The notes under the pieces are model-generated. The model worked only from the letters and a program-made list of their open reading frames with translations, searched no databases and was not told the origin of the DNA. From Jeotgalibacillus malaysiensis (GTDB lineage Bacteria; Bacillota; Bacilli; Bacillales; Jeotgalibacillaceae), in NCBI GenBank assembly GCA_000818095.1, contig CP009416.1:2836501-2900500 (forward strand): a stretch of DNA of 64,000 nucleotides, given 5' to 3'. The position numbers were made by a program, and so were the translations under genes. Shown here piece after piece: positions 2,756 to 56,422 of the stretch (position 1 is its first letter; every line of letters starts with the position of its first letter).

Positions 2756-2924
2756 TTTCGGATCGGATTGACGAATTTTCGGGTCACCTTCTGAGATTTT
2801 CGGGTCACATTTCGGATTTTTCAGGTCACAATTTTTATGCAGACGGTTTTTCGGGTCACTCTCAGCTGATTTCGGGTCACCTTCACTAAATTTCAGGTCA
2901 CCTTTCAAGATTCTCGGGTCACAT
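2756..2924. repeat. 21-nt-pitch array, TTTCGGGTCAC type
   Basis: Eight units begin at 2756, 2777, 2798, 2819 and, after a 30-nt step, 2849, 2870, 2891 and 2912. Apart from that step the pitch is exactly 21 nt. The core is TTTCGGGTCAC with G/A variation in the GGG, and the sequence between cores is not conserved. It starts about 30 nt beyond the wecB terminator and ends before the atp promoter. Confidence 0.9.
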
Positions 2925-2953
2925 CGTTCTCTCTTCCCCCCTCTTTTTTCACT

Positions 2954-2987
2954 AAAAAATCCCGCCCCCTTCCCAGGAGCGGGATTT
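2954..2987 (-). terminator. wecB intrinsic terminator
   Basis: Minus strand AAATCCCGC pairs with GCGGGATTT across a 13-nt loop and runs into TTTTTT, starting 4 nt after the wecB stop. Confidence 0.92.
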
Positions 2988-2990
2988 CTC

Positions 2991-4136
2991 TTACACGCGG
3001 AATGTATCCGGGCGCTGGTCTGTTTCTTTAAAATAGTAGCGGATCGCTTCTGCAATGCGGGCAGATGCTTTTCCGTCACCGTATGGGTTGGACGCTTTAG
3101 ACATAGCCTGATAAGCCGCATCATCTGTCAGCAATTCCGTCGCCATATTGTAAATCTGCTCTTCTTCTATGCCTGCAAGCTTCAGTGTGCCGGCTTCGAT
3201 ACCTTCAGGGCGTTCTGTCGTATCACGCAGTACAAGAACAGGTACACCAAGTGATGGTGCTTCTTCCTGAACGCCACCTGAATCTGTCAGAATCAGATGT
3301 GCTTTTGATGCAAAGTTATGGAAATCGATCACGTCAAGCGGATCAATCAGGTGAATGCGGTCATCTCCACCAAGAATATCATCAGCAATTTCACGAACAG
3401 CTGGGTTCAGGTGGACAGGATACACAACCTGCACATCCTTTTGCTCGTCTACAACGCGCTTGATCGCACGGAACATATTCTTCATTGGCTCACCAAGATT
3501 TTCCCTGCGGTGTGCTGTCACAAGAATCAGGCGGTCTCCGTTTAGCTGATCAAGAATATCGCTCTGATAGTCTTCATTTACAGTAGTGGAGAGTGCGTCG
3601 ATTGCTGTGTTACCTGTGACGAAGATATTTTCTTCAGGCTTGTTTTCCTGAAGAAGGTTGTTTGCTGACTGGTCTGTTGGCGCGAAATGCAGATCTGCCA
3701 TTACACCAGTCAGCTGGCGGTTCATCTCTTCAGGGTACGGTGAATATTTGTTCCATGTACGAAGACCCGCTTCAACGTGTCCGACTGCGATCTGATTGTA
3801 AAATGCAGCAAGACCTGCGACAAATGTCGTTGTCGTATCACCGTGAACAAGTACGATGTCAGGCTTTGTTTCTTTCATAATGCGGTCAAGGCCTTCAAGC
3901 GCACGCGTCGTGATGCCAGTCAGCGTCTGGCGGTCCTTCATAATATTTAAGTCATGGTCAGGTGTGATACCGAAAATGTCCATTACCTGATCAAGCATTT
4001 GACGGTGCTGTGCTGTTACGGTCACGATTGGCTCGAAATACTGATTCTGTTTTTTGAGTTCAAGTACAAGTGGTGCCATTTTGATTGCTTCAGGTCTTGT
4101 ACCGAAGATCGTCATCACTTTTATACGTTTAGACAT
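2991..4136 (-). CDS. wecB: UDP-N-acetylglucosamine 2-epimerase, non-hydrolysing
   Basis: 381 residues, full length. It interconverts UDP-GlcNAc and UDP-ManNAc for wall teichoic acid linkage units and other ManNAc polymers (called mnaA in Bacillus). Visible family motifs are FGTRPEAIKMAPL near the N-terminus, VHGDTTTTF (about residues 97-105), GHVEAGLRTW, and the C-terminal LTDSGGVQEEAPSLGVPVL nucleotide-binding segment. AAAGGAG precedes the ATG. It follows upp after 24 nt and is probably co-transcribed with it. Confidence 0.95.
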   Translation of the reverse strand: MSKRIKVMTIFGTRPEAIKMAPLVLELKKQNQYFEPIVTVTAQHRQMLDQVMDIFGITPDHDLNIMKDRQTLTGITTRALEGLDRIMKETKPDIVLVHGDTTTTFVAGLAAFYNQIAVGHVEAGLRTWNKYSPYPEEMNRQLTGVMADLHFAPTDQSANNLLQENKPEENIFVTGNTAIDALSTTVNEDYQSDILDQLNGDRLILVTAHRRENLGEPMKNMFRAIKRVVDEQKDVQVVYPVHLNPAVREIADDILGGDDRIHLIDPLDVIDFHNFASKAHLILTDSGGVQEEAPSLGVPVLVLRDTTERPEGIEAGTLKLAGIEEEQIYNMATELLTDDAAYQAMSKASNPYGDGKASARIAEAIRYYFKETDQRPDTFRV

Positions 4137-4160
4137 GAGTTTCTCCTTTAATGATTACGC

Positions 4161-4790
4161 TTATTTTGTACCGAATAATCTGTCGCCTGCGTCTCCTAGA
4201 CCAGGGACAATGTAACCTTTTTCATTCAGTTTTTCATCAAGGGCTGCAATGTAAATGTCGACATCATCATGTTCTTTTTTAATTTCTTCAACGCCTTCTG
4301 GTGCTGCAACAAGGCATAGGAACTTAATGTTCTTTGCTCCGCGCTTTTTCAGAGAGTTGATCGCTTCAACTGCTGATCCGCCTGTTGCAAGCATTGGGTC
4401 AACAAGGATGAAGTCGCGCTCCTCTACGTCTGAAGGAAGCTTCACGTAGTATTCAACCGGCTTAAGTGTTTCCGGATCACGGTACAAACCAACGTGTCCA
4501 ACTTTTGCTGCCGGAATCATCTTCAGGATCCCGTCGACCATTCCGATTCCCGCACGCAGGATTGGAACGATTGCAAGTTTTTTACCTGAAAGGACTTTGC
4601 CTTTTGTCTGGCTTACTGGCGTTTTAAGGTCGATTTCTTCCATCGGAAGGTCGCGTGTGATTTCAAAAGCCATAAGTGTTGCCACTTCATCTACAAGTTC
4701 ACGAAAATCTTTTGTTCCTGTTTGTTCATCGCGGATGTGTGTCAGCTTGTGCTGAATCAGCGGATGATCGAATACGTATACTTTTCCCAC
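4161..4790 (-). CDS. upp: uracil phosphoribosyltransferase
   Basis: Converts uracil and PRPP to UMP. The 209-residue product matches the Bacillus enzyme in length and motifs: [11 protein letters not shown], the PRPP loop [11 protein letters not shown] (about 127-137) and GLGDAGDR near the C-terminus. I take the GTG at 4790 ([11 protein letters not shown]) as start, because AAGGAG lies 8 nt upstream of it. A GTG three codons earlier would leave no spacing to the binding site. Confidence 0.95.
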
Positions 4791-4828
4791 ACCTGTCACT
4801 CCTTTTTAAATAGGTTTTGCCAGACGCC

Positions 4829-4955
4829 GCAGATTCTTTCCGTGGGGGACTGCGCTTTCCTGCCCCCGGGCGGAGAGCCTCCTCAGCTTCGCTTGCGGGG
4901 TCTCACCTGTCCCTTCCTGGGGCGGGAGTCTCCGTCCCCCACTACAAGAATCTGC
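4829..4955 (+). repeat. 125-bp structured repeat element, copy 2
   Basis: Ends pair as GCAGATTCT / AGAATCTGC, and the next arm as GTGGGGGAC / GTCCCCCAC. Both differ in sequence from copy 1 yet still pair. The head faces upp, 39 nt upstream of its start. Confidence 0.9.
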
Positions 4956-5014
4956 TCAGTTTGGTTTAAAACTTGTCTGCAAAACACTTATGTAAATTCT
5001 ATTTCATCTTATTT

Positions 5015-5020
5015 ATTATA
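5015..5020 (-). promoter_or_regulatory. possible -10 box of upp-wecB
   Basis: Minus strand TATAAT preceded by TTTGCTT, in the AT-rich gap beyond the repeat. The -35 is not convincing. Confidence 0.35.
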
Positions 5021-5151
5021 AAGCAAATCCTTACGAAAGTTATCATACTTGCAGGTTTTTTACAAGAAAGGTTCGTATGATGTATGGGAAGTGTTATGGA
5101 ATGGTAATTGTACTAAATATTTTGACGGTTTTGGATCGGGGCACGGTTGGG

Positions 5152-5299
5152 TTGTCGATGTTTTTGTTGGATTTGTATGTATTGTGCTGCAGTTTGTCGT
5201 GATACGTCCGGGAGTTTGTCGCTTTCCACACGCAGTTTGTCCCTTTCCGCCGGCACATATGTTGCTTTCTCCAACCTACATGTTTCGCCACACCCTCTT
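5152..5299. repeat. 21-nt-pitch array, TTTGTCGC/CCCGGG type, block 1
   Basis: TTTGT-like cores start at 5172, 5193, 5215, 5236, 5258 and 5279 (pitch 21-22 nt), with GATACGTCCGGGAG between two of them. The block starts TTGTCGATGTTTTTG and ends CACACCCTCTT. The same start and end frame block 2, so the whole block is duplicated. Confidence 0.8.
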
Positions 5300-5359
5300 G
5301 ATGCTTTTTAGATTCTAAAAAAACTGTTTCTCAAGTGCATGGAGGGCTGATGAAGCTGA

Positions 5360-5498
5360 ATGTCGATGTTTTGGTTGGATTTGTAGCAATCAGGCTGCAG
5401 CTTGTCACGATACGCCCGGGAGTTTGTCTTAATCCACCGCCCAAATTTTGCTTTCGAGCTTCCCGAACGTCATCCCCCGGCCTCTCTCACACCCTCTT
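5360..5498. repeat. 21-nt-pitch array, TTTGTCGC/CCCGGG type, block 2
   Basis: Cores at 5380, 5401, 5423 and 5444 (pitch 21-22 nt), with GATACGCCCGGGAG, TGTCGATG at the left end and CACACCCTCTT at the right end, as in block 1. It lies just beyond the glyA terminator. Confidence 0.8.
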
Positions 5499-5512
5499 CA
5501 CGTCCTTAACAA

Positions 5513-5544
5513 ACCAAAAAGACTGCCCAATGAAGGACAGTCTC
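5513..5544 (-). terminator. glyA intrinsic terminator
   Basis: Minus strand GAGACTGTCC pairs with GGGCAGTCTT and runs into TTTTTGG, directly after the glyA stop. Confidence 0.88.
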
Positions 5545-5549
5545 AAATC

Positions 5550-6785
5550 TTACTCGTATAATGCGAAACGGCTTGTGATCTCTTCGACTTTTGCTGCAGC
5601 TTCTTTCAGCTTTGCTTCGTCTTCGTGATTTTTCAGCGCGTTTGCAATCAGTTCAGCGATTTCTTCCATTTCTTTTTCCTTGAAGCCGCGTGATGTGACA
5701 GCTGGCGTTCCGATACGGATACCGCTTGTGACGAACGGGCTTTCAGGGTCGAATGGAATCGTGTTTTTGTTAACAGTGATGCCGATATCATCAAGTACTT
5801 TTTCAGCCACTTTACCTGTCAGGTTCAGCGAGCGAAGGTTTACAAGGACAAGGTGGTTATCAGTACCGTCCGAGACGATATCAATTCCATTTTTCTTGAA
5901 TGCTTCTGCCATTGCTTTTGCGTTTTTCACAACCTGGTCGATATAGTCTTTGAATTCAGGCTTCAGTGCTTCACCGAAAGCGACTGCTTTTGCAGCGATG
6001 ACGTGCATTAACGGTCCACCCTGAACGCCAGGGAAGATTGACTTATCGATTTTTTTCGCGAATTCTTCTTTACAAAGAATCATGCCTCCGCGCGGTCCGC
6101 GAAGTGTTTTGTGCGTTGTTGTTGTAACGAAATGTGCGTGCGGCACTGGAGACGGGTGTGCACCAGTCGCCACAAGTCCTGCGATATGCGCCATATCGAC
6201 CATCAGATACGCGTCCACTTCATCAGCGATTTCACGGAATTTAGCGAAATCAATTGTGCGTGAGTAAGCACTTGCACCGGCTACGATCATCTTCGGCTTG
6301 TGCTCAAGCGCTTTTTGACGAACATCTTCATAATCGATCAGCTCGTCTTTTTCGCCTACACCGTACTCGATGAAATTATATAGTTCACCACTGAAGTTAA
6401 CTGGACTTCCGTGCGTTAAGTGACCTCCATGAGACAGGTTCATACCAAGAACCGTGTCGCCCGGCTTTAGTACTGAGAAATAGACAGCCATGTTAGCCTG
6501 TGCACCTGAGTGCGGCTGAACGTTTGCGTGCTCTGCACCGAAAATTTCTTTCGCGCGGTCGCGTGCTAAGTTTTCAGCGACATCTACGTGCTCACATCCG
6601 CCATAATAGCGGCGTCCAGGGTAACCTTCTGCGTATTTGTTCGTAAGTACTGATCCTTGCGCTTCCATGACTGCTTCACTTACAAAATTCTCTGATGCGA
6701 TCAGCTCGATTTTCGTACGCTGGCGCTTCAGTTCATCCTGCATTGCTTCGAATAATGCCTGATCCTGCTGTTGAATCTTATTCAT
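5550..6785 (-). CDS. glyA: serine hydroxymethyltransferase
   Basis: PLP enzyme that converts serine and tetrahydrofolate to glycine and 5,10-methylene-THF, the main one-carbon entry. 411 residues, full length. The PLP lysine lies in [15 protein letters not shown] (about residues 222-236), and [15 protein letters not shown] and QPHSGAQAN are diagnostic. GAGGGAGGA lies 7 nt ahead of the ATG. A single gene between its own promoter region and terminator. Confidence 0.98.
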
Positions 6786-6906
6786 TGTGAATCCTCCCTC
6801 ATGTTCCGGGTCTGTTCCCGTCTATGGTCAAAAATCTTCTTCATCTTAACATGTTTTTTACGAATGTGAAAATGGCATTTTGGACGAAAAGGAGGTTGTT
6901 ATGCGC

Positions 6907-7209
6907 TTACATCTTAATGTTTGTGAGCATTATAGAGCGGAATGTTCTTTTTTTGATTTCACTTTTTAGTTCTTCAGGTGCTGACTCCCAGCGAATCAGA
7001 TCGAATTTTAAAAGTGTAGGAACCTCTTCAATTCTTTCAGTCAAATCCAGCCATTGCCTCTGGTTTAAATGAGGTGCAATGACGGCAATGTCAATATCAG
7101 AACGTTCATCTGCATCACCATGCGCTCTCGACCCAAATAATAAAAGCTGGTCGATGTGGTATGACTCAGCGATTTTGACGAGCTCATTTGAAATATGTTT
7201 AGGAAGCAT
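6907..7209 (-). CDS. MntA-type minimal nucleotidyltransferase (antitoxin-like)
   Basis: 100 residues. The polymerase-beta fold signature GSRAHGDADERSDID (about residues 26-40) carries the GS and DxD residues needed for nucleotide transfer. In characterised HepT/MntA pairs this protein transfers AMP to the HEPN toxin and so silences it. The ATG lies 1 nt beyond what was once the stop of the HEPN gene, with GAGGAA as binding site, so the two form one unit. Functional status here is inferred; its partner is truncated. Confidence 0.8.
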   Translation of the reverse strand: MLPKHISNELVKIAESYHIDQLLLFGSRAHGDADERSDIDIAVIAPHLNQRQWLDLTERIEEVPTLLKFDLIRWESAPEELKSEIKKRTFRSIMLTNIKM

Positions 7210-7282
7210 ATCATTCCTCCTGAAATTTCTTTTTAAGAAACTTAAATACTGTTTTCATCTCCGGAAAATAAGCATGAATATG

Positions 7283-7606
7283 TTAAAGGATCTCTCTGGC
7301 AAGCTCTTCATTATAAGTGTGTGATGTTTCGTTCCGGTCTTTCAGCATTTGAAGCCATGCCTGTTCATCGTTTAACCATTCTGCTTTATATGCTTCTTTT
7401 AACGTTTCTCTTGGTGTTTTTGCTTCAATGCCTTCTGATTGCAGGCACCTTTTTAGCGTTTTCCAATATAATTCAATCGTGAACTCAAATCGTTGAATTG
7501 TTCCATCTACAATCAGAGAGTTACTCGAATCTTCAGCCAGTGCTTCTTCAAGCCTTGATAACGCAAGAGAAAGGTTATCAAAATTCTTTTTCAGTTTACG
7601 ATCCAT
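7283..7606 (-). CDS. HepT-type HEPN protein, truncated by an in-frame stop
   Basis: 107 residues of the HI0074/HepT family. The RNase motif RNETSHTY (R-x4-H-x-Y, about residues 90-97) is intact, including the Tyr that is AMPylated in studied pairs. A TAA at 7285-7283 ends the frame early. Reading on in the same frame gives HIHAYFPEMKTVFKFLKKKF... to a TGA at 7213-7211, exactly 1 nt before the nucleotidyltransferase ATG, restoring a family-like 131 residues. So the last 24 or so residues have been lost to a nonsense mutation, or there is a base error here. Confidence 0.8.
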   Translation of the reverse strand: MDRKLKKNFDNLSLALSRLEEALAEDSSNSLIVDGTIQRFEFTIELYWKTLKRCLQSEGIEAKTPRETLKEAYKAEWLNDEQAWLQMLKDRNETSHTYNEELAREIL

Positions 7607-7650
7607 CGGCCATCAACTCCTATTTGTTCTCCTCTATCTATTATAACCTA

Positions 7651-7680
7651 AAAACAACCGGTCTCTAAAAGACCGGTTGC
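7651..7680 (-). terminator. ywlG intrinsic terminator
   Basis: Minus strand CAACCGGTCT pairs with AGACCGGTTG (10 bp, TTTAG loop), then TTTTT. Confidence 0.92.
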
Positions 7681-7688
7681 CTATCTAT

Positions 7689-8222
7689 CTATTCAAGCTC
7701 GTATACTGCCCGCGCACCGCCAACCAGTTTCGGTCTTGTGCGTGCGAGCGTGATGTGTGCTTCTCCGAGCGATTTCGCTGCGACACGAACCGGTACAGCG
7801 ACAGGCTTCAGGTGCATGCCAATCAGCGTATCGCCAATGTCGATGCCGCCGTGCGCCTGGATGCGCTCGACTGCAACCGGATCCTTCATGTGGCGATATG
7901 CATATGACGCCATTGCACCGCCCGCTTTTCGCACAGGTACGACTGTAACTTCTTCAAGGCCGTAGCGCTCTGCTGTTTCACGTTCCACGATCAGCGCCCG
8001 GTTGATGTGTTCACACCCCTGAAATGCAAGGTGAAGTCCTGTATCTGCTGAAAATCTCTCAAATGCTTTATACAGTGATTCAGCAACTTCATCTGTACCT
8101 GACGTGCCGATTTTACGGCCGATGACTTCAGAGGTTGAGCAGCCGATGACAAACAGCTGTCCCTCTTTTAATGAAGCCTGCTCCTGGTATTCCATAAGGA
8201 TTGACAGCAATTCCTGGTTCAT
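7689..8222 (-). CDS. ywlG: UPF0340 / TIGR01440 family protein
   Basis: 177 residues, function unknown. Visible features are [11 protein letters not shown] near residue 30, [14 protein letters not shown] in the middle and [12 protein letters not shown]. The family always neighbours rpiB and ywlE in Bacillus. The open frame runs 63 codons further upstream, but only because it reads through the repeat element. The start at 8222 has AGAAGG ahead of it and matches the family N-terminus ([13 protein letters not shown]). Confidence 0.9.
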
Positions 8223-8259
8223 CACAAGCCCTTCTTTCTGTTTGGTTCTGTCAGAACGG

Positions 8260-8382
8260 GCTGATGGCTTCCGCTCCAGGGGGACGCTTTCCATGGCCGG
8301 GCGGTGAGCCAGCAGGCTTCGCCGCTGCCTCACACGCCCCTTCCTGCCACAGAAGTCGCCCCCTGCAGCGAGAGCCATCAGC
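8260..8382 (+). repeat. 125-bp structured repeat element, copy 3
   Basis: Ends pair as GCTGATGGCT / AGCCATCAGC. Inner TGGC pairs with GCCA where most copies have CGGC / GCCG, a compensatory change. The head faces ywlG, 38 nt upstream of its start. Confidence 0.9.
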
Positions 8383-8425
8383 TGTGCATCTATATGATTA
8401 GCCCTTAACAAAAAAGTTAATATGA

Positions 8426-8866
8426 TTACTTCGCTTCATACTCACTCATCTTATTAATACGATTCTCGTGTCGTCCGCCTTCAAACTCTCCCTGCAGCCA
8501 GATGGACGCGATGTCACGTGCAAGGCCCGGTCCAATGACTCGCTCACCCATTGCAAGCATATTGGAATCGTTGTGTCCGCGCGTTGCTTTTGCGCTGAAC
8601 GTGTCATGCACAAGTGCGCAGCGGATTCCTTTTACTTTGTTCGCTGCAATGCTCATGCCAATGCCTGTCCCGCAGATCAGAATGCCGCGGTCGAATTCAC
8701 CTGACGCCACTTTTTCAGCAACCGGCAGTGCGTAATCAGGGTAATCAACAGACCCCTCGCAGTCACAGCCGAAATCTTCAAATTCAATGTTCAATTCTGT
8801 TAAAAGATCTGCCATTTCCTTGCGCAGATTCGTACCACCATGATCAGATGCTAATGCGACTTTCAT
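8426..8866 (-). CDS. rpiB: ribose-5-phosphate isomerase B
   Basis: 146 residues, RpiB/LacAB family. It interconverts ribose-5-P and ribulose-5-P. SDHGG at the N-terminus, the active-site [20 protein letters not shown] (about residues 65-84) and [15 protein letters not shown] are all present. It starts 1 nt after the ywlE stop with GGGAGGA, so it is translationally linked to ywlE. Confidence 0.95.
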
Positions 8867-8867
8867 A

Positions 8868-9320
8868 TTAAAATCCTCCCTGTTCCTGTTTATTAAGGTT
8901 TTTCAGCATGCTATCCATTAACCTGTTTAACTCGTTAAATGTGGAGCGGTACACTTCCACTGGACCGCCATACGGATCTGATACATCAAGTCCGCGTTCT
9001 GAAGAAAATTCTTTCAGCGTGAAAATACGGTCAGCTGCAAACGGAAATTGTTCCATTAGCATGGCCTTATGAGAGCTTGTCATTGCAAACACATAATCCG
9101 CCCAGTGGACATCAGACTGCGTAACCGTATGCGAACGGTGATCATGCGTCAGACCATTCTCCTCAAGTACCTGTTGCGCATTGTGGGATGCCATCCCGCC
9201 TTCCATCGCAAAAAGCCCGGCAGAACGCACCTCAATATGCGGCTCATCTCTATGATTTAAAATTGCTTCAGCCATCGGACTGCGGCAAGTATTCCCTGTA
9301 CAAATAAATAAAATCCTCAT
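8868..9320 (-). CDS. ywlE: protein-arginine phosphatase
   Basis: 150-residue low-molecular-weight phosphatase fold. The loop CTGNTCRSPMAE (residues 7-18) carries the catalytic Cys and Arg. The Thr within CTGNTCR, instead of the usual Ile, is the residue known to select phospho-arginine in B. subtilis YwlE. The general acid is in DPYGG (about residue 118). It removes marks placed by the McsB kinase and so restrains ClpCP degradation. First gene of ywlE-rpiB. Confidence 0.92.
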   Translation of the reverse strand: MRILFICTGNTCRSPMAEAILNHRDEPHIEVRSAGLFAMEGGMASHNAQQVLEENGLTHDHRSHTVTQSDVHWADYVFAMTSSHKAMLMEQFPFAADRIFTLKEFSSERGLDVSDPYGGPVEVYRSTFNELNRLMDSMLKNLNKQEQGGF

Positions 9321-9395
9321 GAAAACGACCCCTTTTTAGGATTCTCACTTCCCTCTTAGCTTATCACATTTTGGACACTTTTTCTTTTGGGGAGT

Positions 9396-9485
9396 GTTGA
9401 GTGATGCAGGAGGCGGCACACCGGGGACGGAGTTGTGTGGTTCGTTTTTAGAATGATTACAAAAATGAATCACTCAACTCCGTCC
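9396..9485. repeat. two overlapping inverted repeats downstream of the LacI-type gene
   Basis: GTTGAGTGAT (9396-9405) pairs with ATCACTCAAC (9469-9478), and GGACGGAGTTG (9425-9435) pairs with CAACTCCGTCC (9475-9485). The two right arms share CAAC, so only one hairpin can form at a time. No coding role seen. Confidence 0.6.
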
Positions 9486-9502
9486 CGCCTGCGCCGCACC
9501 AA

Positions 9503-9530: not shown

Positions 9531-9538
9531 CATGGAAA

Positions 9539-10609
<1,071 letters not shown>

Positions 10610-29234: not shown

Positions 29235-29286
29235 CTCAGTCATCTCCTTCCGCCCTGAACCATCTGGAACAGAGTAAGTATCTTAC

Positions 29287-37282: not shown

Positions 37283-37317
37283 CCCCGGCTGCTGGATTGA
37301 TAGCGGCCGGGGTTTTT
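37283..37317 (+). terminator. ywjG intrinsic terminator
   Basis: CCCCGGC pairs with GCCGGGG across a 16-nt loop, then TTTTT. Confidence 0.88.
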
Positions 37318-37370
37318 ATATTTGCGTGGAATGTCCGGGCATGAATGGCGGACGGGTGTGGGCGTGAGGA

Positions 37371-37576
37371 ATTCCTTCATTTGAAGAGTTTTTCACTCAA
37401 TTTGATTTTTATTCGTTCATTCTGGCTAGTGGATTCCTTCAATTTTGCTATTGATTACTTCATTTCAGTTCAGATCATTGTAATTACATCATCATTAAGA
37501 TTAATTCCATCAACTCAGAACAGATTCCCTTCAACACCAACTCCGATTCCATCAGCCTACATCACTCCCTTTCAGG
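37371..37576. repeat. 21-nt-pitch array, ATTCCTTCAA type, copy C1
   Basis: TCA of the core ATTCCWTCA lies at 37377, 37397, 37417, 37439, 37460 and, after a 29-nt step, 37489, 37510, 37531, 37552 and 37572 (pitch 20-22). It lies between the ywjG terminator and the convergent NERD gene, whose last codons it overlaps. Confidence 0.85.
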
Positions 37577-39061: not shown

Positions 39062-39136
39062 GTTTTTCACCTCCTTTTGTTGATTATACCCAGTTTCGCA
39101 GGTACACGCTAACTTTTAGAAAAGGGGGAAAGCGAA

Positions 39137-39318
39137 TGAAGGAAACATCAATTGGGCTGAAGGAAATAGTAGTTTGTGTGAGGGAATCTGACTTGAATTT
39201 GAAGGAAAAATGCCCTCTTCAGCTTCATTGAAGCAATAATTGTGCAGATTGATCGAATCATTTCTGAATTGAAGGAATCTCCATCCAAATTGATGTAAAA
39301 AAACACAGATTGAAGGAA
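39137..39318. repeat. 21-nt-pitch array, ATTCCTTCAA type, copy C2
   Basis: Plus strand TGAAGGAA-like cores at 39137, 39158, 39179, 39200 and, after a 29-nt step, 39229, 39250, 39270, 39291 and 39311. Same core as the array at 37371 but on the other strand. It lies just beyond the pyrG terminator. Confidence 0.88.
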
Positions 39319-39352
39319 ATCCGCCAACTAACCCCGACAATCGTTCCACCAC

Positions 39353-39390
39353 TAAAAAATCCCCCACCCAACCCCGGGCGGAGGACCTAA
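39353..39390 (-). terminator. pyrG intrinsic terminator
   Basis: Minus strand CCTCCGCCC pairs with GGGTGGGGG (one mismatch) and runs into ATTTTTT. Confidence 0.85.
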
Positions 39391-49896: not shown

Positions 49897-49927
49897 TGGG
49901 ATTCTCCTTTGTTTAGCTTTAGTAAAC

Positions 49928-50051
49928 GTTGATTTCCGCTGAGGGCACTCGCTTTCCGCGGGGCGTGCGCTGAGCCTCCTCGGCTGCGCCTGCGGGGTCT
50001 CACCTGTCACGCTTCTCCCGCAGGAGTCTCGCACCCTCAGCTCCAATCAAC
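49928..50051 (+). repeat. 125-bp structured repeat element, copy 16
   Basis: Ends GTTGATT / AATCAAC, next arm GCTGAGGG / CCCTCAGC. The head faces the hydroxyacyl-CoA dehydrogenase, 32 nt from its start, inside the operon. Confidence 0.92.
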
Positions 50052-50137
50052 TTAGATCGTGCATTTAAAGTTGAATGCTAATTCAATCGTTTATGAGACT
50101 TTTAAAAATCAGTAACGTTTGGGTACACAATTCAGAA

Positions 50138-51316
50138 TCAAACCTGAATCAGTACTGCGTCGCCCTGGCCTCCGCCTGAGCAGATGGCTGCGATGCCGAG
50201 GCCGCCGCCGCGGCGTTTGAGTTCGTAAGCAAGTGTCAGGATGACACGCGCGCCGCTTGCGCCGATTGGGTGTCCAAGTGCGACTGCGCCTCCGTTGACG
50301 TTTACTTTTTCAGGGTCAAGCTTGGCAATTTTATTACTTGCCAGTGCAACTGCTGAGAATGCTTCATTGATTTCAAACAGGTCGATATCTTCGAGTTTGT
50401 AGCCTGTTTTTTCAAGCAGTGCGTTGATCACAAGTCCAGGTGTCTGCGGGAAGTTTTTCGCTTCAACTGCTACTTCTGCGTGTCCAAGAATGGTTGCAAG
50501 CGGCGTCTTGCCTTCTTTTTCGGCGCGCTCATCGCTCATTAATACCATTGCGCATGCACCGTCGTTGATGCCAGGTGCGTTACCCGCTGTGATTGTGCCG
50601 TCTTTTCCGAATGCCGGACGAAGACCTGCAAGTGTTTCAGGTGTCGTTCCTCTTCTGACTGATTCATCGTTTTCAACAGTGATTGGGTCACCTTTACGCT
50701 GCGGCACCTGAAGCGGCACGATTTCTTCAGCAAAAACACCGTTATCAATCGCATCGCCTGCAAGCTTGTGGCTTCTTGCTGCCCATGCATCCTGTTCTTC
50801 ACGTGTCAGGCTGAATTCTTCAGCTGTTGAGTTTCCGTAAGTACCCATGTGAACGTTATTAAATGTACAAGTCAGTCCATCGTGAACCATCATGTCTTTT
50901 ACCATCTGGTCTCCCATGCGGAAGCCTGATCTTGCTTTATCCATAAAATAGGGTGCATTTGTCATTGACTCCATGCCGCCTGCAACAATCAGAGACTCGT
51001 CTCCAAGTCTGATCAGCTGGTCTCCAAGTGTGACTGAACGCATGCCTGACGCACATACTTTGTTGATTGTTTCTGTTTTCACTTCCCATGGAATGCCTGC
51101 TTTTTGTGCTGCCTGGCGTGATGGGATTTGTCCCTGTCCACCCTGCAGGACTGTTCCAAGGATGACTTCATCTATAGTTTCCGGTGCAATGTCTGCACGC
51201 TTAAGTGCTTCTTTGATTGCTGCTGCTCCAAGGTCTGAGGCTGTGAATGATGCGAGTGATCCGCCCATTTTTCCGAAAGGTGTTCTTGCTCCGTCAATAA
51301 TTACTGTTTTTGGCAT
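50138..51316 (-). CDS. acetyl-CoA acetyltransferase (thiolase)
   Basis: 392 residues. Nucleophile Cys in [12 protein letters not shown] (about 89), [17 protein letters not shown] with the His (about 350) and [10 protein letters not shown] with the second Cys (about 381). Cleaves acetoacetyl- or 3-ketoacyl-CoA. First gene of the minus-strand acyl-CoA operon. AAAGGGGAG ahead of the ATG. Confidence 0.96.
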
Positions 51317-51350
51317 TGTGATTCTCCCCTTTGTTTAACTTTGATAGCCG

Positions 51351-51476
51351 CTGATCTCCGCTGCGGGCGGGCGCTTTCCGCGGCCGCGCGGTGAGCCTCC
51401 TCAACGCTGCGCGTCTCCGGGGTCTCACCTGTCGCTTCTATGCCGCAGGAGTCGCCCGCCCTCCGCTACGATCAGC
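51351..51476 (+). repeat. 125-bp structured repeat element, copy 17
   Basis: Ends GCTGATC / GATCAGC, next arm GGGCGGGCG / CGCCCGCCC. The head faces the thiolase, 35 nt from its start. Confidence 0.92.
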
Positions 51477-51590
51477 TGTGACTGTGAAATTTAATACAGT
51501 CCGTCAATCTAAAAGTAAATTTTGAATCCGCTTACAAAAATGCATCCTTGACTTGAACATGTTGACTTTTTGTCTGGGATTGCGTGTTGT

Positions 51591-51610
51591 TGACTGAACG
51601 CTCGCTCAGT
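51591..51610. promoter_or_regulatory. FadR-like operator in the thiolase leader
   Basis: TGACTGAACGCTCGCTCAGT, an imperfect palindrome of the form ACTGAnCGnnCGnTCAGT. It matches the operator inside the fadF promoter at 17 of 20 positions. Confidence 0.75.
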
Positions 51611-51623
51611 AAATCCCCTTTAA

Positions 51624-51645
51624 AAAAGCCGATTTAACGGCATTT
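51624..51645 (-). terminator. weak leader terminator ahead of thiolase
   Basis: Minus strand GCCG, TTAAAT loop, CGGC, then TTTTTT. It lies between promoter and operator. The stem is short, so activity is uncertain. Confidence 0.4.
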
Positions 51646-51664
51646 AAATGATTCTTCCTCTTCT

Positions 51665-51693
51665 ATTGTAAGCGATTTCAAGCGTTGATACAA
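51665..51693 (-). promoter_or_regulatory. promoter of the acyl-CoA operon
   Basis: Minus strand TTGTAT (51693-51688), 17-nt spacer, TACAAT (51670-51665). The cre site overlaps the -10. Confidence 0.65.
51667..51680 (+). promoter_or_regulatory. cre site (CcpA) at the acyl-CoA operon promoter
   Basis: TGTAAGCGATTTCA fits the cre consensus at every position and covers the -10 region, so carbon catabolite repression of fatty-acid breakdown is expected. Confidence 0.75.
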
Positions 51694-51748
51694 GTGGGAT
51701 TTTAAATAGGAAGAGTGATTTTGAGTCTGGTGTTTTGTCTTGGTGTGG

Positions 51749-51861
51749 GTTCGACGGAAAATGGTTCATGTTCGGCGTTTAAGCTGTGATGTTCGACGTT
51801 CGTGAAGCTGTGTTCGACGCTCGTGGTGTGGTGTTCGACTTTTAATCGCGAAGGTTCGCCA
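51749..51861. repeat. 21-nt-pitch array, TTCGAC type
   Basis: TTCGAC-like cores at 51750, 51771, 51792, 51813, 51834 and 51855: five consecutive steps of exactly 21 nt. Between the fadF terminator and the acyl-CoA operon promoter. Confidence 0.9.
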
Positions 51862-51912
51862 CTTAGTATCAAAAGACCTATGACCGCTGTGACCACCTCA
51901 GCTCTCATACCG

Positions 51913-51953
51913 AAAAAACGACCTGGCCGTCATCAGAAGCAGCCAGGTCGTTT
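51913..51953 (-). terminator. fadF intrinsic terminator
   Basis: Minus strand AACGACCTGGCTGC... pairs as AACGACCTGGC / GCCAGGTCGTT, then TTTT. It lies 300 nt beyond the fadF stop, after the tandem 123-bp repeats. Confidence 0.88.
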
Positions 51954-52003
51954 GGTTTTATTAGTGTATGTGGGTGCGAATAAAGCGTCTCCGCTTTTTC
52001 ACT

Positions 52004-52252
52004 TTGTCCAGCTCCAGGCGCTAGCTCTTCGGGTCATAAGCCGCGCATCGGTAAACGGGAAACTACACCCCTTTTCCGCTGTGCGTCTTATGCCTGTCAG
52101 AGCTGAACGAGCGCCTTCCGCTTTTCTTTATTGTCCAGCTTCAGCGCCTAGCCCCTCGAGTCATAAGTCAACCTGAGAAAACGGGAAAGTTCACCCGTTT
52201 CTCTCAGTTCGCCTTATGCTTGTCGGGTCTGTCCAGGCGCTTCCGCTTTTCT
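52004..52252. repeat. tandem pair of a 123-bp Bacillus-type intergenic repeat
   Basis: Two similar copies (52004-52126 and 52131-52252), each running TTGTCCAGCTYCAGGCGCTAG ... GGTCATAAG ... ACGGGAAA ... CTTATGCYTGTC ... GCGCYTTCCGCTTTTC. Each folds as a long hairpin (GGCGC / GCGCC, GTCATAAG / CTTATG, AACGGG / CCCGTT). Different from the 125-bp element. I recognise this type as widespread between genes in Bacillus and Geobacillus. Confidence 0.85.
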
Positions 52253-52255
52253 TAC

Positions 52256-54373
52256 TTATGCACTTTCCGCTGTTTGAGGCTTCCCAATCACACTCAGCTC
52301 AAGCAGTTCAGCTACATCCATTGTACCTACTTCTTCTTCAACTTCCTTCGCCTTCGTACCGTCTGACAGCATTGTCAGGCAGTATGGGCAGCCGGAGCTG
52401 ATCATGGATGGTTCTACGACGAGTGCCTGTTCTGTACGGGCGACGTTGACGCGGTGGCCTTTGTCTTCTTCCATCCACATGAGTCCTCCGCCGGCGCCAC
52501 AGCACATACCTTTTTCGCGGTTACGTTCCATTTCCACGAGTTGAACGCCTGGGATTGATTTCAGGATTTCACGCGGTGGATCGTATACTTCGTTGTAGCG
52601 GCCGAGGTAGCATGAGTCGTGGAAGGTGATCTTCTCATTGACTGCATGTACCGGCTTCAGTTTGCCTCGCTCCACCAGTTCTGCAAGTACTTCTGTGTGG
52701 TGGTAGACTTCAGCTTTCAGACCGAATTCAGGATACTCATTTTTAAAGACATTGTATGCGTGAGGATCGATCGTTACGATCTTTTTCACGTCATTTTTTT
52801 CAAACTCAGCGATGTTCGCATTCGCAAGCTCCTGGAATAAGAATTCATTTCCTAGGCGGCGTGGCGTATCGCCTGAGTTTTTCTCTTTGTTTCCGAGAAT
52901 CGCGAATTTCACGCCTGCTTCATTTAGCATTTTCGCAAATGACAGCGCAATTTTCTGGCTTCGGTTGTCAAATGAACCCATTGAGCCAACCCAGAAAAGG
53001 TATTCAAATTCTTCATCTGCTTTTTTCATTTCTTTTACTGTTGGTACCACAACGTCTTCGCGTGCTTCTCTCCAGTTTTCTTTTTCTTTACGATTCAGAC
53101 CCCAAGGATTACCCTGACGCTCAATGTTTTGCATTGCGCGCTGTGCATCCGGCTCCATTTTACCTTCAGTCAGTACAAGGTAACGGCGCAGGTCGATAAT
53201 TTTATCAACGTGTTCGTTCATGACAGGACACTGGTCCTCACAGTTACGGCACGTTGTACAAGCCCAGATCTCCTCTTCAGTGATGACGTCACCGATCAGG
53301 CTCGGGTGGTACATATCGATTGCTGCTTCAGTGCCGCCGTTTGCTGCAGCTGCTGCGATCTGGTTCCCTTTTGTCTGAGCAAAAGCAGGTGCCGGTACCC
53401 ATGGAGACTGTGACGTGACTGCTGCTCCTGTAAACGTCAGGTGGTCACGGATTTTAGTAATCAGATCCATCGGTGACAGCATTTTACCAGTACCGGTTGC
53501 AGGACACATATTCGTACAGCGTCCGCATTCAACGCATGCGTACAGGTCAATCATCTGAAGCTGCGTGAAATCTTCCACTTTTCCAACACCAAACGTTTCC
53601 TGTGACTCATCTTCAAAGTTAATGCTGCGAAGCTTACCAGGATTATCAAGACGGTTGAAATATACGTTGATTGGTCCTGCAATTAAGTGCGCGTGCTTTG
53701 ACTGTGGCACGTATACTAAGAAGCCGAGCAGGAATAATAAGTGTACCCACCACGCAAAATAGAAGATGACCGCGTTTGCTGTAGCACCCATCCAGCCGGT
53801 AGCAAGTGCGATAACTGATGCGACAGGCTCTGTCCAAGTCGGCTCATGGTCGAAGAAGACAATTCCCGCACCATTTCCGAGTAATACAGAAACCATTAGT
53901 CCGCCGATAAAAATCAGTACAAGTCCTGATTTAAAACCTCTTTTTAGACGGACAAGCTTTTCCATGTAGCGGCGGTAGAATGCCCATGCCACTGCCACAA
54001 GGATTATGAGAGTGACGAGTTCCTGGAAGAATGTGAATCCAGGATAGAAAATACCAAGCGGCAAATGTTCACCAGGTACAAGCCCTTTGTAGATGAAATC
54101 AATTGCGCCTGCCTGCACAAGCAGGAATCCGTAGAAGAACATGACGTGAATCATCCCGCTCTTCTTATCCTTCAATAATTTTTTCTGGCCAAATACCTGA
54201 ACCATGATTTTCTTCATGCGTTCTTTCACGTTGTTATCAAACTCTTCTTTTTTACCGAGTTTGATAAAGTCATAGCGTGATTTAACCAGATAGCCAAATA
54301 AATAGACTGCGTAAGCGGTTACAAGAATGAACGCAATCCAGTTAACAATCAGCAAAATATCCCCAATGCTCAT
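52256..54373 (-). CDS. fadF: FadF-type iron-sulfur oxidoreductase
   Basis: 705 residues. About six N-terminal membrane helices (nitrate-reductase-gamma-like), two 4Fe-4S ferredoxin clusters (CVECGRCTNMCPATG and CTTCRNCEDQCPVM, about 280-390) and two C-terminal CCG domains (KGMCCGAGGG, SSGCPYCLTM). Thought to carry electrons from acyl-CoA dehydrogenases via ETF to the quinone pool. Orthologue of B. subtilis ywjF, in the same place. Promoter with embedded FadR-like operator. Confidence 0.93.
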   Translation of the reverse strand: MSIGDILLIVNWIAFILVTAYAVYLFGYLVKSRYDFIKLGKKEEFDNNVKERMKKIMVQVFGQKKLLKDKKSGMIHVMFFYGFLLVQAGAIDFIYKGLVPGEHLPLGIFYPGFTFFQELVTLIILVAVAWAFYRRYMEKLVRLKRGFKSGLVLIFIGGLMVSVLLGNGAGIVFFDHEPTWTEPVASVIALATGWMGATANAVIFYFAWWVHLLFLLGFLVYVPQSKHAHLIAGPINVYFNRLDNPGKLRSINFEDESQETFGVGKVEDFTQLQMIDLYACVECGRCTNMCPATGTGKMLSPMDLITKIRDHLTFTGAAVTSQSPWVPAPAFAQTKGNQIAAAAANGGTEAAIDMYHPSLIGDVITEEEIWACTTCRNCEDQCPVMNEHVDKIIDLRRYLVLTEGKMEPDAQRAMQNIERQGNPWGLNRKEKENWREAREDVVVPTVKEMKKADEEFEYLFWVGSMGSFDNRSQKIALSFAKMLNEAGVKFAILGNKEKNSGDTPRRLGNEFLFQELANANIAEFEKNDVKKIVTIDPHAYNVFKNEYPEFGLKAEVYHHTEVLAELVERGKLKPVHAVNEKITFHDSCYLGRYNEVYDPPREILKSIPGVQLVEMERNREKGMCCGAGGGLMWMEEDKGHRVNVARTEQALVVEPSMISSGCPYCLTMLSDGTKAKEVEEEVGTMDVAELLELSVIGKPQTAESA

Positions 54374-54418
54374 GTTCGCTGCACTCCTCCCAAAGTTGTC
54401 TGACTCTTTCTTATACCC

Positions 54419-54446
54419 ATTATATAATGAATGAGCATTCAGTCAA
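54419..54446 (-). promoter_or_regulatory. promoter of fadF
   Basis: Minus strand TTGACT (54446-54441), 16-nt spacer, TATAAT (54424-54419). The spacer is filled by the operator. Confidence 0.8.
54426..54445. promoter_or_regulatory. FadR-like operator in fadF promoter
   Basis: Minus strand TGACTGAATGCTCATTCATT, the same pattern as 51591-51610 (shared consensus TGACTGAAYGCTCRYTCAKT). Between -35 and -10, so binding should repress. Confidence 0.8.
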
Positions 54447-54524
54447 TGGATTTTCAGAACTTTTCTCTTTCATTTTACAGGTTCTGCTGTTATTTGGACA
54501 TACTATTTTCGAGAAAGGAGTCGG

Positions 54525-55669
54525 ATGATGAAAATATTTGTCTGGATTGCACTGCTTGTTATCTGGCTCAGACTGGACTGGCTGGCCGGATTGAAAAAGA
54601 ATAAACAACCACTTGCTTCTCCCTATAAAAAGAAAAATGCTGAAGCCACTTTTTTTGACGATGGCGTTGAATGGATGAAGCAGCTCGAGGATGACTGTGT
54701 AAATGCAGTCTGCACAATTGATATCATGTTTTTCATTTTACAGTCCGATGATGCTGGGAAACGCATGATGAAGCTCCTTGTAAAAAAAGCGCGTGAAGGC
54801 GTAAGCGTGCGGCTGATGCTGGATGCGATTGGCAGCCGTCCCTTTAAAAAGTCACTGAAACATATTCCGCATGAAGGCGTGATCATTCAATTCAGCCGCC
54901 CATTCAGGTTTAAAGGGAGTTGGTTTTCGATGCAGAAGCGCAATCATAAAAACTTTCAGTAATTGATAAAAAAATTGCACATGTGGGCGGATTTAATATC
55001 GGACTTGAATATCTCCACCTGGATCCTGTGCTGACGCCATGGCGGGATTATCATCTGCGTTTGACCGGCGAGATCACGCAGGACTGTCAGACTGAATTTG
55101 AGCGTGACTGGCGTGAGGAATCCATTGAGCCTGAAAAGAATGGCAATGGACAATATCAGCTTGTATCTTCCGAAACGGTTGATCAGGAAGATTTTATTTG
55201 CAGCCTTCTTAAGAAAGCGTCGGCTTCGATTTTTATCGGCTCGCCGTATTTTATTCCGACTCAGAAGGTTGAATCTTGTTTATTTGAAGCGATTGAAAAA
55301 GGAGTCCGGCTTACCATCCTTGTTCCCGGAACGCCTGATCACCCCCTCGTACAGCCGGCCTCATACCGCTACCTTCGTCGACTGATTGAAAAAGGTGCGG
55401 ATGTGTATCAATTTCAAAACGGCTTTTATCATGCAAAAGCGATTTTAATTGATGACAGGCTGTGTGATATTGGCACAATGAATTTTGATCGTCGGAGTCT
55501 GTTAATTAATGAAGAGTTAAATGTAATTACAGAGGATGCTAACGTGATCCGCTCTTTGACGGAGAGTTTTAAGAAAGATCTGGCAAATTCAATCAAGCTT
55601 CAGGTTGGGGATCTGAAAGTCCAGCCAATTAAAGAAACGGCTGCATGGTGTGTGGGGCATTTGCTGTAG
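54525..55669 (+). pseudogene. clsB: minor cardiolipin synthase, frameshifted
   Basis: Phospholipase-D family with a single N-terminal membrane helix (about 3-20). The first part runs to QKRNHKNF and hits TAA at 54960. The -1 frame continues ...VIDKKIAHVGGFNIGLEYLHLDP... through the second PLD motif FYHAKAILIDDRLCDIGTMNFD to 55669. One A is missing in the run at CATAAAAAC (about 54945-54951); a sixth A would give NHKKLSVIDKK, restoring the first HxK motif. Equivalent to B. subtilis ywjE, next to fadF. Base error or real inactivation cannot be told apart here. Confidence 0.85.
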
Positions 55670-55671
55670 AG

Positions 55672-55707
55672 AAAAAGGCAAAGAGTATTGTGACTCTCTG
55701 CCTTTTT
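55672..55707. terminator. bidirectional terminator between clsB and zinc-ribbon gene
   Basis: AAAAAGGCAAAGAG pairs with CTCTCTGCCTTTTT (one mismatch) with T-runs on both strands. Confidence 0.88.
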
Positions 55708-56008
55708 ACCAAAGTGGTTTGTCTTCGTTTGAAAGTCTGACTGCTGAAGGTAGAGCGAGTATTGAAACAACAAACACGCTAACCGCTAATATAGCCATTC
55801 CGGGTAAAGATAAATCGAGGATCAGCGCGCCAAATATGATGATCGCACTTACCAAACCGGTAAGCGAAGCAGAGCGTTTTCTCGAATTGGGTGTGACGTA
55901 CTGTTTCTTTCCACAATGCGGACATTCCATCCCGCCATTAAACCACATGATTCGTTTAAAAGCTTTTGAATAAGGCCATTTTTGATTACAGGTTTGACAG
56001 ACCGGCAT
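55706..56008 (-). CDS. zinc-ribbon membrane protein (cxxc_20_cxxc type)
   Basis: 100 residues. Two CxxC pairs 20 or so residues apart (VCQTCNQKW and ECPHCGKKQY), then two hydrophobic helices. Matches the TIGR04104-like cxxc_20_cxxc family of Bacilli, function unknown. The ATG at 56008 has AAAGGAGG; the open frame runs 49 codons upstream into the 21-nt array, which I reject. Confidence 0.82.
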   Translation of the reverse strand: MPVCQTCNQKWPYSKAFKRIMWFNGGMECPHCGKKQYVTPNSRKRSASLTGLVSAIIIFGALILDLSLPGMAILAVSVFVVSILALPSAVRLSNEDKPLW

Positions 56009-56080
56009 GATATGTTCCTCCTTTAGTTTGCTTATAGTATTAATACGGATGAGTGCTGGGAAAGTTCCCTTTTTGGTGGG

Positions 56081-56198
56081 ATTGCGACAATCTGTGCGCG
56101 GATTGCGACAAATTCCCGGGTGTGTCGCTACAAATCCCCGGGTGTATTGGGACAAACCGAGAGAGGATTGCTACATATCCCCGGGCATATCAGGACAT
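56081..56198. repeat. 21-nt-pitch array, TTTGTCGC/CCCGGG type, copy D3
   Basis: Plus strand GACAA-like cores at 56086, 56107, 56129, 56151, 56172 and 56194 (pitch 21-22), with CCCGGG between several. Same family as 5152-5498 but in the opposite orientation. Confidence 0.85.
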
Positions 56199-56228
56199 TT
56201 CACAACGCTCCAGCAAATGCACACTGCA

Positions 56229-56279
56229 CTCTTCATGCTTTTAAGCATCAATCTTTTAGTTTCCTAAGAGCATGAAGAG
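56229..56279. repeat. inverted repeat between two 21-nt arrays
   Basis: CTCTTCATGCT (56229-56239) and AGCATGAAGAG (56269-56279), perfect 11 bp with 29-nt loop. It could act as a weak hairpin; no T-run. Confidence 0.6.
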
Positions 56280-56327
56280 GGGCTGGGCAGAAAATGAAAG
56301 GTGGTGTTCTGGACCGGATCACGCCGG

Positions 56328-56422
56328 ATCGCTACAACACTGACCGGGATTGCAACAAACTCCCGGGCGTATCGGGACAAACTGAGAGAGGATTGCTACA
56401 AATCCCGGGCGTATCACGACAA
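56328..56422. repeat. 21-nt-pitch array, TTTGTCGC/CCCGGG type, copy D4
   Basis: Cores TACAA, AACAA, GACAA, TACAA and GACAA at 56333, 56354, 56376, 56397 and 56418 (pitch 21-22), with CCCGGGCGTATC between. It starts about 30 nt beyond the terminator of the B12 operon. Confidence 0.85.

What the first reader, a model, noticed from the sequence alone, without database searches (positions are those of the whole stretch)
2756..56422. Eight intergenic arrays share a 21-nt pitch but use different core sequences
At 2756, 5152, 5360, 37371, 39137, 51749, 56081 and 56328, short degenerate direct repeats recur every 21 nt (20-22). Four cores occur: TTTCGGGTCAC, TTTGTCGC with CCCGGG, ATTCCTTCAA and TTCGAC. 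DNA between cores is not conserved, so what is kept is core plus pitch, that is, two helical turns. All cores of an array would face one side of the duplex, as for cooperatively bound protein sites or iterons. The other shared property is location: all eight lie just beyond an intrinsic terminator (wecB, glyA, ywjG, pyrG, fadF, B12 operon), and several directly precede the next promoter. I know of no described system of this form. A role as insulator, fail-safe terminator or binding site for a chromosome-organising protein is inference.
Basis: partly seen in the sequence, partly recalled or inferred. Interest (0 to 1): 0.88.

Follow-up and report, generated by a model that had tools for sequence, protein, structure and literature searches.

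The report
Fixed-layout repeat elements after bacterial genes
Dozens of short DNA elements, each a set number of copies of a species-specific word placed about every 20-22 letters, sit just past gene ends, mostly on the origin side of the chromosome, in this bacterium and in related genera; they look like docking platforms for unidentified DNA-binding proteins.

Summary
In a sampled 39% of this Jeotgalibacillus genome, 7-base words in noncoding DNA recur at lag 21 about nine times above background, with peaks at 42 and 63; coding DNA shows only its triplet rhythm. There are at least five main core families, each with its own layout, not just a pitch: A has 8 sites (21,21,21,30,21,21,21; exact in 12 of 15 runs), C typically 9 with a 29-30 step, D/F 6, E 6 with a central 22, B about 5. 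Spacers are largely unrelated. The elements follow an intrinsic terminator, favour convergent gaps, are rare in divergent gaps, and are nearly absent from the terminus region and second replicon; that empty zone matches the one of nucleoid-occlusion sites. G/T-rich arms point inward on both sides. Mesobacillus and Sporosarcina carry such arrays with other cores; at one Mesobacillus gap two core types occur in different species. At that gap cores are 91% conserved and spacers 56%. Best reading: binding platforms for fixed-size protein assemblies acting as transcription-unit boundaries and/or chromosome landmarks. The protein is unknown, and an inert REP-like repeat is not excluded. No description was found in the open-access papers searched.

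The parts
2754..2925 (+). Family A element: 8 sites AnTTTCnGGTCACnTT, steps 21,21,21,30,21,21,21
2958..2986 (-).
   Evidence: home-made hairpin plus T-run scan
2709..2753 (+). G/T-rich inward arm left of the family A element
   Evidence: arm statistics over 71 spans; sequence
5169..5270 (+). Family B element, 5 sites TTTGTCGC-type
5377..5440 (+). Second, shorter family B array: 3 recognisable sites, steps 21 and 22; ends approximate
5519..5544 (-). Intrinsic terminator after glyA, before the two B arrays
37283..37312 (+).
37368..37558 (+). Family C element, 9 sites ATTCCTTCAAT-type, steps 20,20,22,21,29,21,21,21
39133..39322 (-). Family C element, reversed, 9 sites, steps 20,21,20,21,29,21,21,21
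39359..39386 (-).
51745..51865 (+). Family D element, 6 sites TGTTCGACG-type, all steps 21
51920..51949 (-). Intrinsic terminator beside the D element
55677..55702 (+). Intrinsic terminator of the plus-strand gene left of the two B elements
56079..56202 (-). Family B element, reversed, 5-6 sites, with CCCGGG in its spacers
56326..56426 (-). Family B element, reversed, 5 sites
56454..56483 (-). Intrinsic terminator of the minus-strand gene right of the B elements

Best explanation
Each element is a docking platform on double-stranded DNA for a sequence-specific protein that assembles with a set number of protomers or domains, one per core, held at a rigid 20-22 bp step; A and C carry two such blocks (4+4 and 5+4) joined by a 29-30 bp step. 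Different core families imply different proteins, or one protein family with changing specificity. The filled platform sits between the terminator of one transcription unit and the next gene. There it most likely works as a two-way boundary that stops read-through transcription, and, since it is largely kept out of the terminus region and the second replicon, as a landmark for origin-side chromosome organisation, in the manner of Noc or SlmA sites. SHOWN: the layouts, the post-terminator placement, the terminus depletion, the inward arms, mixed orientation of cores against genes, stronger conservation of core than spacer at one orthologous gap. INFERRED: that a protein binds, that it is an assembly, and both functions.
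For: Rigid steps: 26 of 27 A pairs at 21, 144 of 148 and 49 of 49 pairs at 21 in Mesobacillus, 69 of 72 at 20 in S. thermotolerans. Layouts recur at unlinked loci: A exact in 12 of 15 runs, F in 6 of 8. Between 12 A elements cores are 80% identical, spacers 39%, chance 25% (sites were picked by PWM, which raises the core figure). Core constraint free of that bias: in five Mesobacillus species at one orthologous array, core 364/400 pairwise identities, spacer 178/316. Core orientation mixed against transcription (14 same, 8 opposite) and little RNA fold signal (mean z about -0.5 on both strands, 71 spans). Terminator before array in 26 of 31. Convergent 25/71, codirectional 31/297, divergent 1/104. 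Terminus region 0/83 against 56/285 with the motif-free caller, 2/83 against 74/285 with PWM calls added. Second replicon 1/53 against 56/285 non-divergent gaps, 0/68 by PWM. Empty zone shared with canonical Noc sites.
Against: No binding protein was found: 1572 predicted proteins from the 39% sample held no evident tandem-repeat DNA-binding protein (ten of the candidates were annotated). At the D gap the alimentarius copy looks about as diverged in cores as in spacers by eye, so some arrays may be decaying. Elements come and go between species (own 15, alimentarius 8, both 5 of 82 orthologous gaps), odd for an important boundary. Orientation is mixed only in the pool: A is 5 to 1 and F 3 to 0 with transcription, B and D 0 to 2 against it, too few to exclude a family-specific direction. 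Terminus depletion is not absolute (a C array at 1.909 Mb, a D-like one at 1.318 Mb), and PWMs find 1 C and 2 B chains in 104 divergent gaps. The 1.25-Mb boundary was set after seeing the first data. The 29-30 step breaks helical phase.
Confidence: 0.45

Rival explanations
1. Inert or selfish extragenic repeats of the REP kind: a dispersal mechanism spreads them and they survive only where harmless, past terminators and away from promoters.
For: The A core pair is found in this species and J. alimentarius only, 2 of 12 Jeotgalibacillus genomes, and F is patchy; presence or absence at orthologous gaps; preference for convergent gaps, as stated for REPs (PMC1525189, passages); whole-unit gain and loss; the D gap shows no core advantage by eye.
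Against: Same-family elements share little spacer sequence, unlike fresh copies (39% identity). Core is constrained over spacer at an orthologous array. No Y1 (RAYT-type) transposase found in the genome. Harmlessness alone does not predict terminus depletion.
Confidence: 0.25
2. An RNA-level element: a 3' untranslated region, small RNA or Rho-type fail-safe terminator that works as transcript.
For: Placement after intrinsic terminators; RNA leaving the array on either strand is C-rich and G-poor, as in rut regions (recalled); within some families core direction may follow transcription (A 5 to 1, F 3 to 0); 14% and 10% of spans fold with z below -2.
Against: Pooled core orientation is mixed (14 same, 8 opposite); mean folding is near that of shuffles; rigid steps suit duplex DNA better than RNA.
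Confidence: 0.12
3. Iteron-like decoys that titrate replication initiators of plasmids or phages.
For: Direct repeats of 20-22 bp in set number look like iterons (recalled anatomy).
Against: Plasmid searches with two arrays and a phage search with one array gave no match; a viral-contig scan for one core pair gave 7 stretches in a collection of 2.9 million contigs.
Confidence: 0.06
4. Old slippage-made tandem repeats in decay.
For: Copy number changes by whole units.
Against: Decay would erode core and spacer alike; at the orthologous Mesobacillus array cores hold and spacers do not, and layouts with an exact irregular step recur at unlinked loci.
Confidence: 0.03

Closest known systems
REP sequences / BIMEs of enterobacteria and pseudomonads
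   Same: Extragenic, many copies, frequent between convergent genes (PMC1525189, passages); arranged in composite structures (PMC2817692, start of abstract in the listing).
   Different: REPs are palindromes, alternating in BIMEs; these are direct repeats of a mostly non-palindromic core with fixed steps and G/T-rich arms. No Y1 transposase was found here.
Noc-binding sites (NBS) of Bacillus, and SlmA sites of E. coli
   Same: Sequence-specific chromosomal sites absent from the terminus region (PMC4331003, passages). The empty zones here nearly coincide: NBS 1.151-2.408 Mb (18 of 20 sites listed), F pairs 1.057-2.354 Mb.
   Different: NBS are single palindromes; 1 of 12 sampled NBS (up to 1 mismatch) lies inside an array. 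Noc and canonical NBS exist alongside the arrays.
Plasmid iterons and partition sites such as parC and tubC (recalled)
   Same: Set numbers of direct repeats at a regular step, sometimes as two blocks with a longer gap.
   Different: Those sit beside their protein gene on one replicon; here there are dozens per chromosome, after terminators. Neighbouring genes were not annotated systematically.
TAACTGA direct repeats of Beggiatoaceae
   Same: Intergenic direct repeats in many sets per genome (PMC4679880, abstract and outline).
   Different: Most of those lie just upstream of start codons and are attributed to translation; these lie after terminators.

Membership tests
REP/BIME | palindromic unit able to form a hairpin | tested here: not met
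   mean fold z about -0.5 on both strands over 71 spans; 14% and 10% of spans are below -2
REP/BIME | extragenic, enriched between convergent genes | tested here: met
   convergent 25/71, codirectional 31/297, divergent 1/104
REP/BIME | Y1 (REP-associated tyrosine) transposase in the genome | tested here: not met
   0 matches to PF01797 in own genome; 5 of 14 control genomes ring
Noc-binding site | 14-bp palindrome ATTTCCCGGGAAAT | tested here: not met
   1 of 12 sampled NBS with at most 1 mismatch lies in an array span
Noc-binding site | absence from the terminus region | tested here: met
   strong depletion, 2/83 against 74/285 gaps; NBS show nearly the same void
Noc-binding site | bound by Noc | not testable with these tools
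   Noc gene is present in all 8 genomes tested; binding needs an experiment
Plasmid iteron | direct repeats of about 19-22 bp | tested here: met
Plasmid iteron | shared with plasmid origins | tested here: not met
   no plasmid match for two arrays, no phage match for one array; many chromosomal loci
Plasmid iteron | beside an initiator gene | not tested
   neighbours were not annotated systematically
Ordinary tandem repeat | whole unit repeated, spacer included | tested here: not met
   within A elements core 79%, spacer 33%
Rfam structured RNA | match to a known family | tested here: not met
   the only gathering-level Rfam hit in the window is an L31 leader elsewhere

The most novel reading that the evidence does not exclude
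An undescribed class of bacterial chromosome element: origin-side, post-terminator nucleoprotein platforms with a set number of sites per core family, read by a fast-evolving set of DNA-binding proteins whose specificity, and with it the cores across the genome, changes between species while place and step are kept; widespread in Bacillaceae and Planococcaceae.
Probability: 0.35. Interest if true: 0.92.

Novelty: categorically new. Interest (0 to 1): 0.86.

Why it matters
If the elements are protein platforms, a sizeable part of 3' intergenic DNA in a major bacterial group is an organised, site-counted landmark system that annotation misses, with a chromosome-scale layout like that of nucleoid occlusion. 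Species change the core word while keeping place and step, which would make it a bacterial case of fast co-evolution between a chromosomal site and its protein, like centromeres. It also offers a ready biochemical handle: one element of about 172 bp with eight sites for a pull-down.

Tried and rejected
Open reading frame explanation: steps of 20, 22 and 29 break any reading frame, so the arrays are not heptad-coding.

RAYT-driven REP: no Y1 transposase found.

Noc-site clusters: rejected. CCCGGG is enriched in B and E spans (4.8 and 3.6 per kb against 0.22 in gaps without arrays), a shared module, not an NBS.

Tandem-repeat DNA-binding protein as reader of the array: looked for in 1572 predicted proteins of the sample, none evident (ten candidates annotated). 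A TPR protein with a weak C-terminal HTH hit at L036:2533-3981, next to a B array, looked promising but I take it for an ordinary YvcD-like gene beside the his operon (names recalled, not tested).

Hairpin between the two arms: not supported (own pairs -23.6, mismatched pairs -24.9 kcal/mol).

Phage or plasmid origin: no support.

Literature: six searches looked for such elements and four for known systems (RacA, 78 Noc, 81 REP, 89 bcr). Open-access papers only; subscription papers could not be searched. RefZ passages were read and not used.

Rows dropped before counts: gaps under 150 nt, gaps with N, gaps at locus ends, and the part of L043 that duplicates the window. One search's 77 chains count the wecB array twice. 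One search's coding control was spoilt by masked N runs and is replaced. The last line (0 in array) was a script error, replaced. The chain at window 41223 overlaps a terminator hairpin and is an artefact, but stays in the counts. In one search five of the nine species were used; the other four have a different unit number or an indel.
Full report
WHERE IT IS. The window is bases 2,836,501-2,900,500 of contig C1 (3.516 Mb) of a 4.12-Mb genome with a second contig C2 of 0.60 Mb. The closest named genome found is Jeotgalibacillus alimentarius (GlyA 97% identical). GC skew and gene strand place the origin of C1 near position 0 and the terminus near 1.72 Mb.

IS IT REAL. Yes. In 78 stretches of 20 kb plus the window (1.62 Mb), the chance that a 7-base word in noncoding DNA recurs 21 bases on is 9.3 times background, with further peaks at 42 (6.4x) and 63 (3.4x). 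Coding DNA has a triplet rhythm; its lag 21 is 1.28 times its other multiples of three (a first coding control was spoilt by N runs). Chains of three or more near-identical 8-mers in noncoding DNA number 76 at lag 21, 0-6 at ten control lags and 21 at the harmonic 42; coding DNA has 10 at lag 21 and 6-14 at four control lags. Of 540 gaps of 150 nt or more, 58 hold such chains at lag 21 and 0-7 at six control lags. Genome-wide, the A core pair occurs 27 times and its reversed control 0 times; the F pair 104 times and 0. The A core TTTCRGGTCAC is found 36 times in arrays, 2 times alone in noncoding DNA and 2 times in coding DNA of the sample.

ANATOMY. PWM scans show a layout for each family; column-permuted PWMs give no chain in any of 540 gaps. 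A (AnTTTCnGGTCACnTT): eight sites, steps 21,21,21,30,21,21,21, exact in 12 of 15 runs and one base off in a thirteenth. C (ATTCCTTCAAT): typically nine sites, four steps of 20-22, then 29-30, then three of about 21; a 29-30 step is seen in 9 of 16 C runs, and of 15 C spans six have nine sites and three have eight. F (TTTTTCTACGAAC): six sites at 21, exact in 6 of 8 runs. D, which shares the half GTTCG, has six sites in 3 of 7 spans. E (CACTACCGTCA): six sites with a 22 in the exact middle in 3 of 6 runs. B (TTTGTCGCnAT): most often five sites with one 22; the two commonest forms make 8 of 21 runs. Same-family elements at different loci share cores but few spacer letters: 80% against 39% over 12 A elements, chance 25%, the core figure being raised by PWM selection. 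The transcripts fold little better than shuffles (mean z about -0.5; 14% and 10% of 71 spans below -2). Outside the array, the strand running toward it is G/T-rich on both sides: left 45 nt G 0.339, C 0.145; right 45 nt C 0.353, G 0.138, over 71 spans, for both core orientations and both gene directions. Gaps without arrays have no such skew. The two arms are not complementary beyond composition.

WHERE THE ELEMENTS SIT. In the sampled chromosome C1, motif-free calls fall in 25 of 71 convergent, 31 of 297 codirectional and 1 of 104 divergent gaps; the divergent one is a T-rich chain. PWMs add 1 C and 2 B chains in divergent gaps. In codirectional array gaps the intrinsic terminator lies between gene and array in 26 of 31, overlaps in 1, is not recognised in 4 and lies only beyond the array in 0; 27 of 31 have a terminator against 125 of 266 gaps without array. 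In convergent array gaps 21 of 25 have a terminator beside the array. Beyond 1.25 Mb from the origin (29% of C1; boundary set after the first look), 0 of 83 non-divergent gaps hold an array against 56 of 285 nearer (Fisher 2.9e-7); with PWM calls added 2 of 83 against 74 of 285 (1.6e-7). Of these 83, 42 come from stretches fetched after the boundary was seen: 0 motif-free, 2 by PWM. The two exceptions are a D-like array at 1.318 Mb and a C array at 1.909 Mb. In the second replicon 1 of 53 non-divergent gaps has a chain, T-rich again (Fisher 5e-4 against the origin side), and PWMs find 0 of 68 gaps. The whole-genome listing of F pairs, which stops at 3.02 Mb, has none between 1.057 and 2.354 Mb.

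NEARLY THE SAME ZONE AS NUCLEOID-OCCLUSION SITES. Noc is present above cut-off in all 8 genomes tested. Canonical Noc sites (up to one mismatch; 20 in the genome, 18 listed) are absent between 1.151 and 2.408 Mb. A paper on Noc states that its sites are absent from the terminus and that SlmA sites are distributed similarly (PMC4331003, passages). The arrays are not Noc sites: of 12 sampled sites one lies inside an A element.

OTHER GENERA. In 80 glyA loci of named organisms, 53 chains occur at lag 21 (7 of them from one amplified array in L097) against 2-11 at six control lags; chains of four or more copies occur in 17 loci, which I assign to Bacillaceae and Planococcaceae in the broad sense (families recalled). 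The cores differ. In Mesobacillus the pair TCGCGGAAT occurs in 12 of 21 genomes (148 pairs, 144 at exactly 21) and ATAATTGCA in 10 of 21 (49 of 49 at 21); reversed controls are 0. In Sporosarcina the pair CGCATAAA occurs in 10 of 41 genomes, up to 147 pairs, reversed controls 0-2, at a step of 20 in G018 (69 of 72). Terminus depletion repeats: in Mesobacillus G023 no pair of either kind lies between 1.095 and 3.306 Mb of 4.70 Mb, and in Sporosarcina G018 none between 2.05 and 3.08 Mb; both gaps contain the GC-skew terminus. Inward arms of the same sign, weaker, appear over 28 arrays of the glyA loci. In seven other Jeotgalibacillus genomes, sampled with 12 stretches, 8 chains were found at lag 21, in three of the seven.

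HOW THEY EVOLVE. At one gap, seen in 15 of 21 Mesobacillus genomes, 9 carry the TCGCGGAATT core and 6 the AATAATTGCAC core, both at 21; the preceding terminator is visible in the first group and in two of the second, the others being cut by the stretch shown. Within the first group units come and go whole: 2, 4 and 6 units beside the usual 5. In five of those nine species (those with five units and no large indel), core columns are 91% identical (32 of 40 invariant) and spacers 56% (8 of 32 invariant). Between this genome and J. alimentarius (82 orthologous gaps, flanks about 83% identical), 15 own gaps and 8 alimentarius gaps hold chains, 5 both. At one, cores mostly read TTTC here and TTAC there; at the wecB gap and one other the cores differ; the glyA-upp arrays are missing there; at the D gap the alimentarius cores look no better kept than the spacers. 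The A pair is found in 2 of 12 Jeotgalibacillus genomes, the F pair in 7 of 12.

MECHANISM. The rigid step, the recurring number of sites, the constraint on cores and the pooled indifference to orientation fit a protein assembly on duplex DNA better than an RNA or a mutational relic; within families orientation counts are small and not all balanced. The placement fits a boundary between transcription units; the terminus depletion fits a chromosome-scale role. Which of the two matters, and which protein binds, is not shown. No evident tandem-repeat DNA-binding protein was found among 1572 predicted proteins of the sample. Gene calls and terminator calls are home-made and approximate.

NOVELTY. 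Six searches of open-access full text aimed at such elements found none; four more concerned known systems. It works in part like REP/BIME (place, species-specificity), like iterons (set numbers of direct repeats) and like Noc sites (terminus-poor), but fails a tested defining feature of each.

Noticed in passing
L009:8023-8036 (C1:88023): A perfect canonical Noc site lies inside a family A element.
   Followed up: partly
G018:C1:327078-327179, 716179-716320; G044:C23:75916-76017: Several Sporosarcina arrays occur as two blocks facing each other (plus-strand sites, then minus-strand sites) with a short gap between.
   Followed up: no
L015:2439-2531, L045:12326-12572, window 56100-56190: A module CCCGGGTGTATC-like is shared by elements with different cores (B, E and a TGCACTCA core) and is kept at the L045 gap in J. 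alimentarius although the core there differs.
   Followed up: partly
window 5270-5360, 56200-56325; L036:4260-4310: Paired B elements are joined by a segment with a recurring GCATGAAGAGGGTGTG-like motif.
   Followed up: no
L097:7713-8400: In Bacillus sp. CECT 9360 a five-site array is itself repeated about seven times with a period near 100 nt.
   Followed up: no
G000 C2 (603 kb): The second replicon, sampled in 10 stretches, has no convincing array.
   Followed up: partly
window 29244-29274: L31-Firmicutes ribosomal protein leader on the minus strand (Rfam RF03156).
   Followed up: no
G004, G006, G011 (Jeotgalibacillus): The F pair is abundant in these genomes (67, 66 and 14) but rare (5) in J. 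alimentarius, the most similar genome found, a patchy spread that suggests gain, loss or transfer.
   Followed up: no
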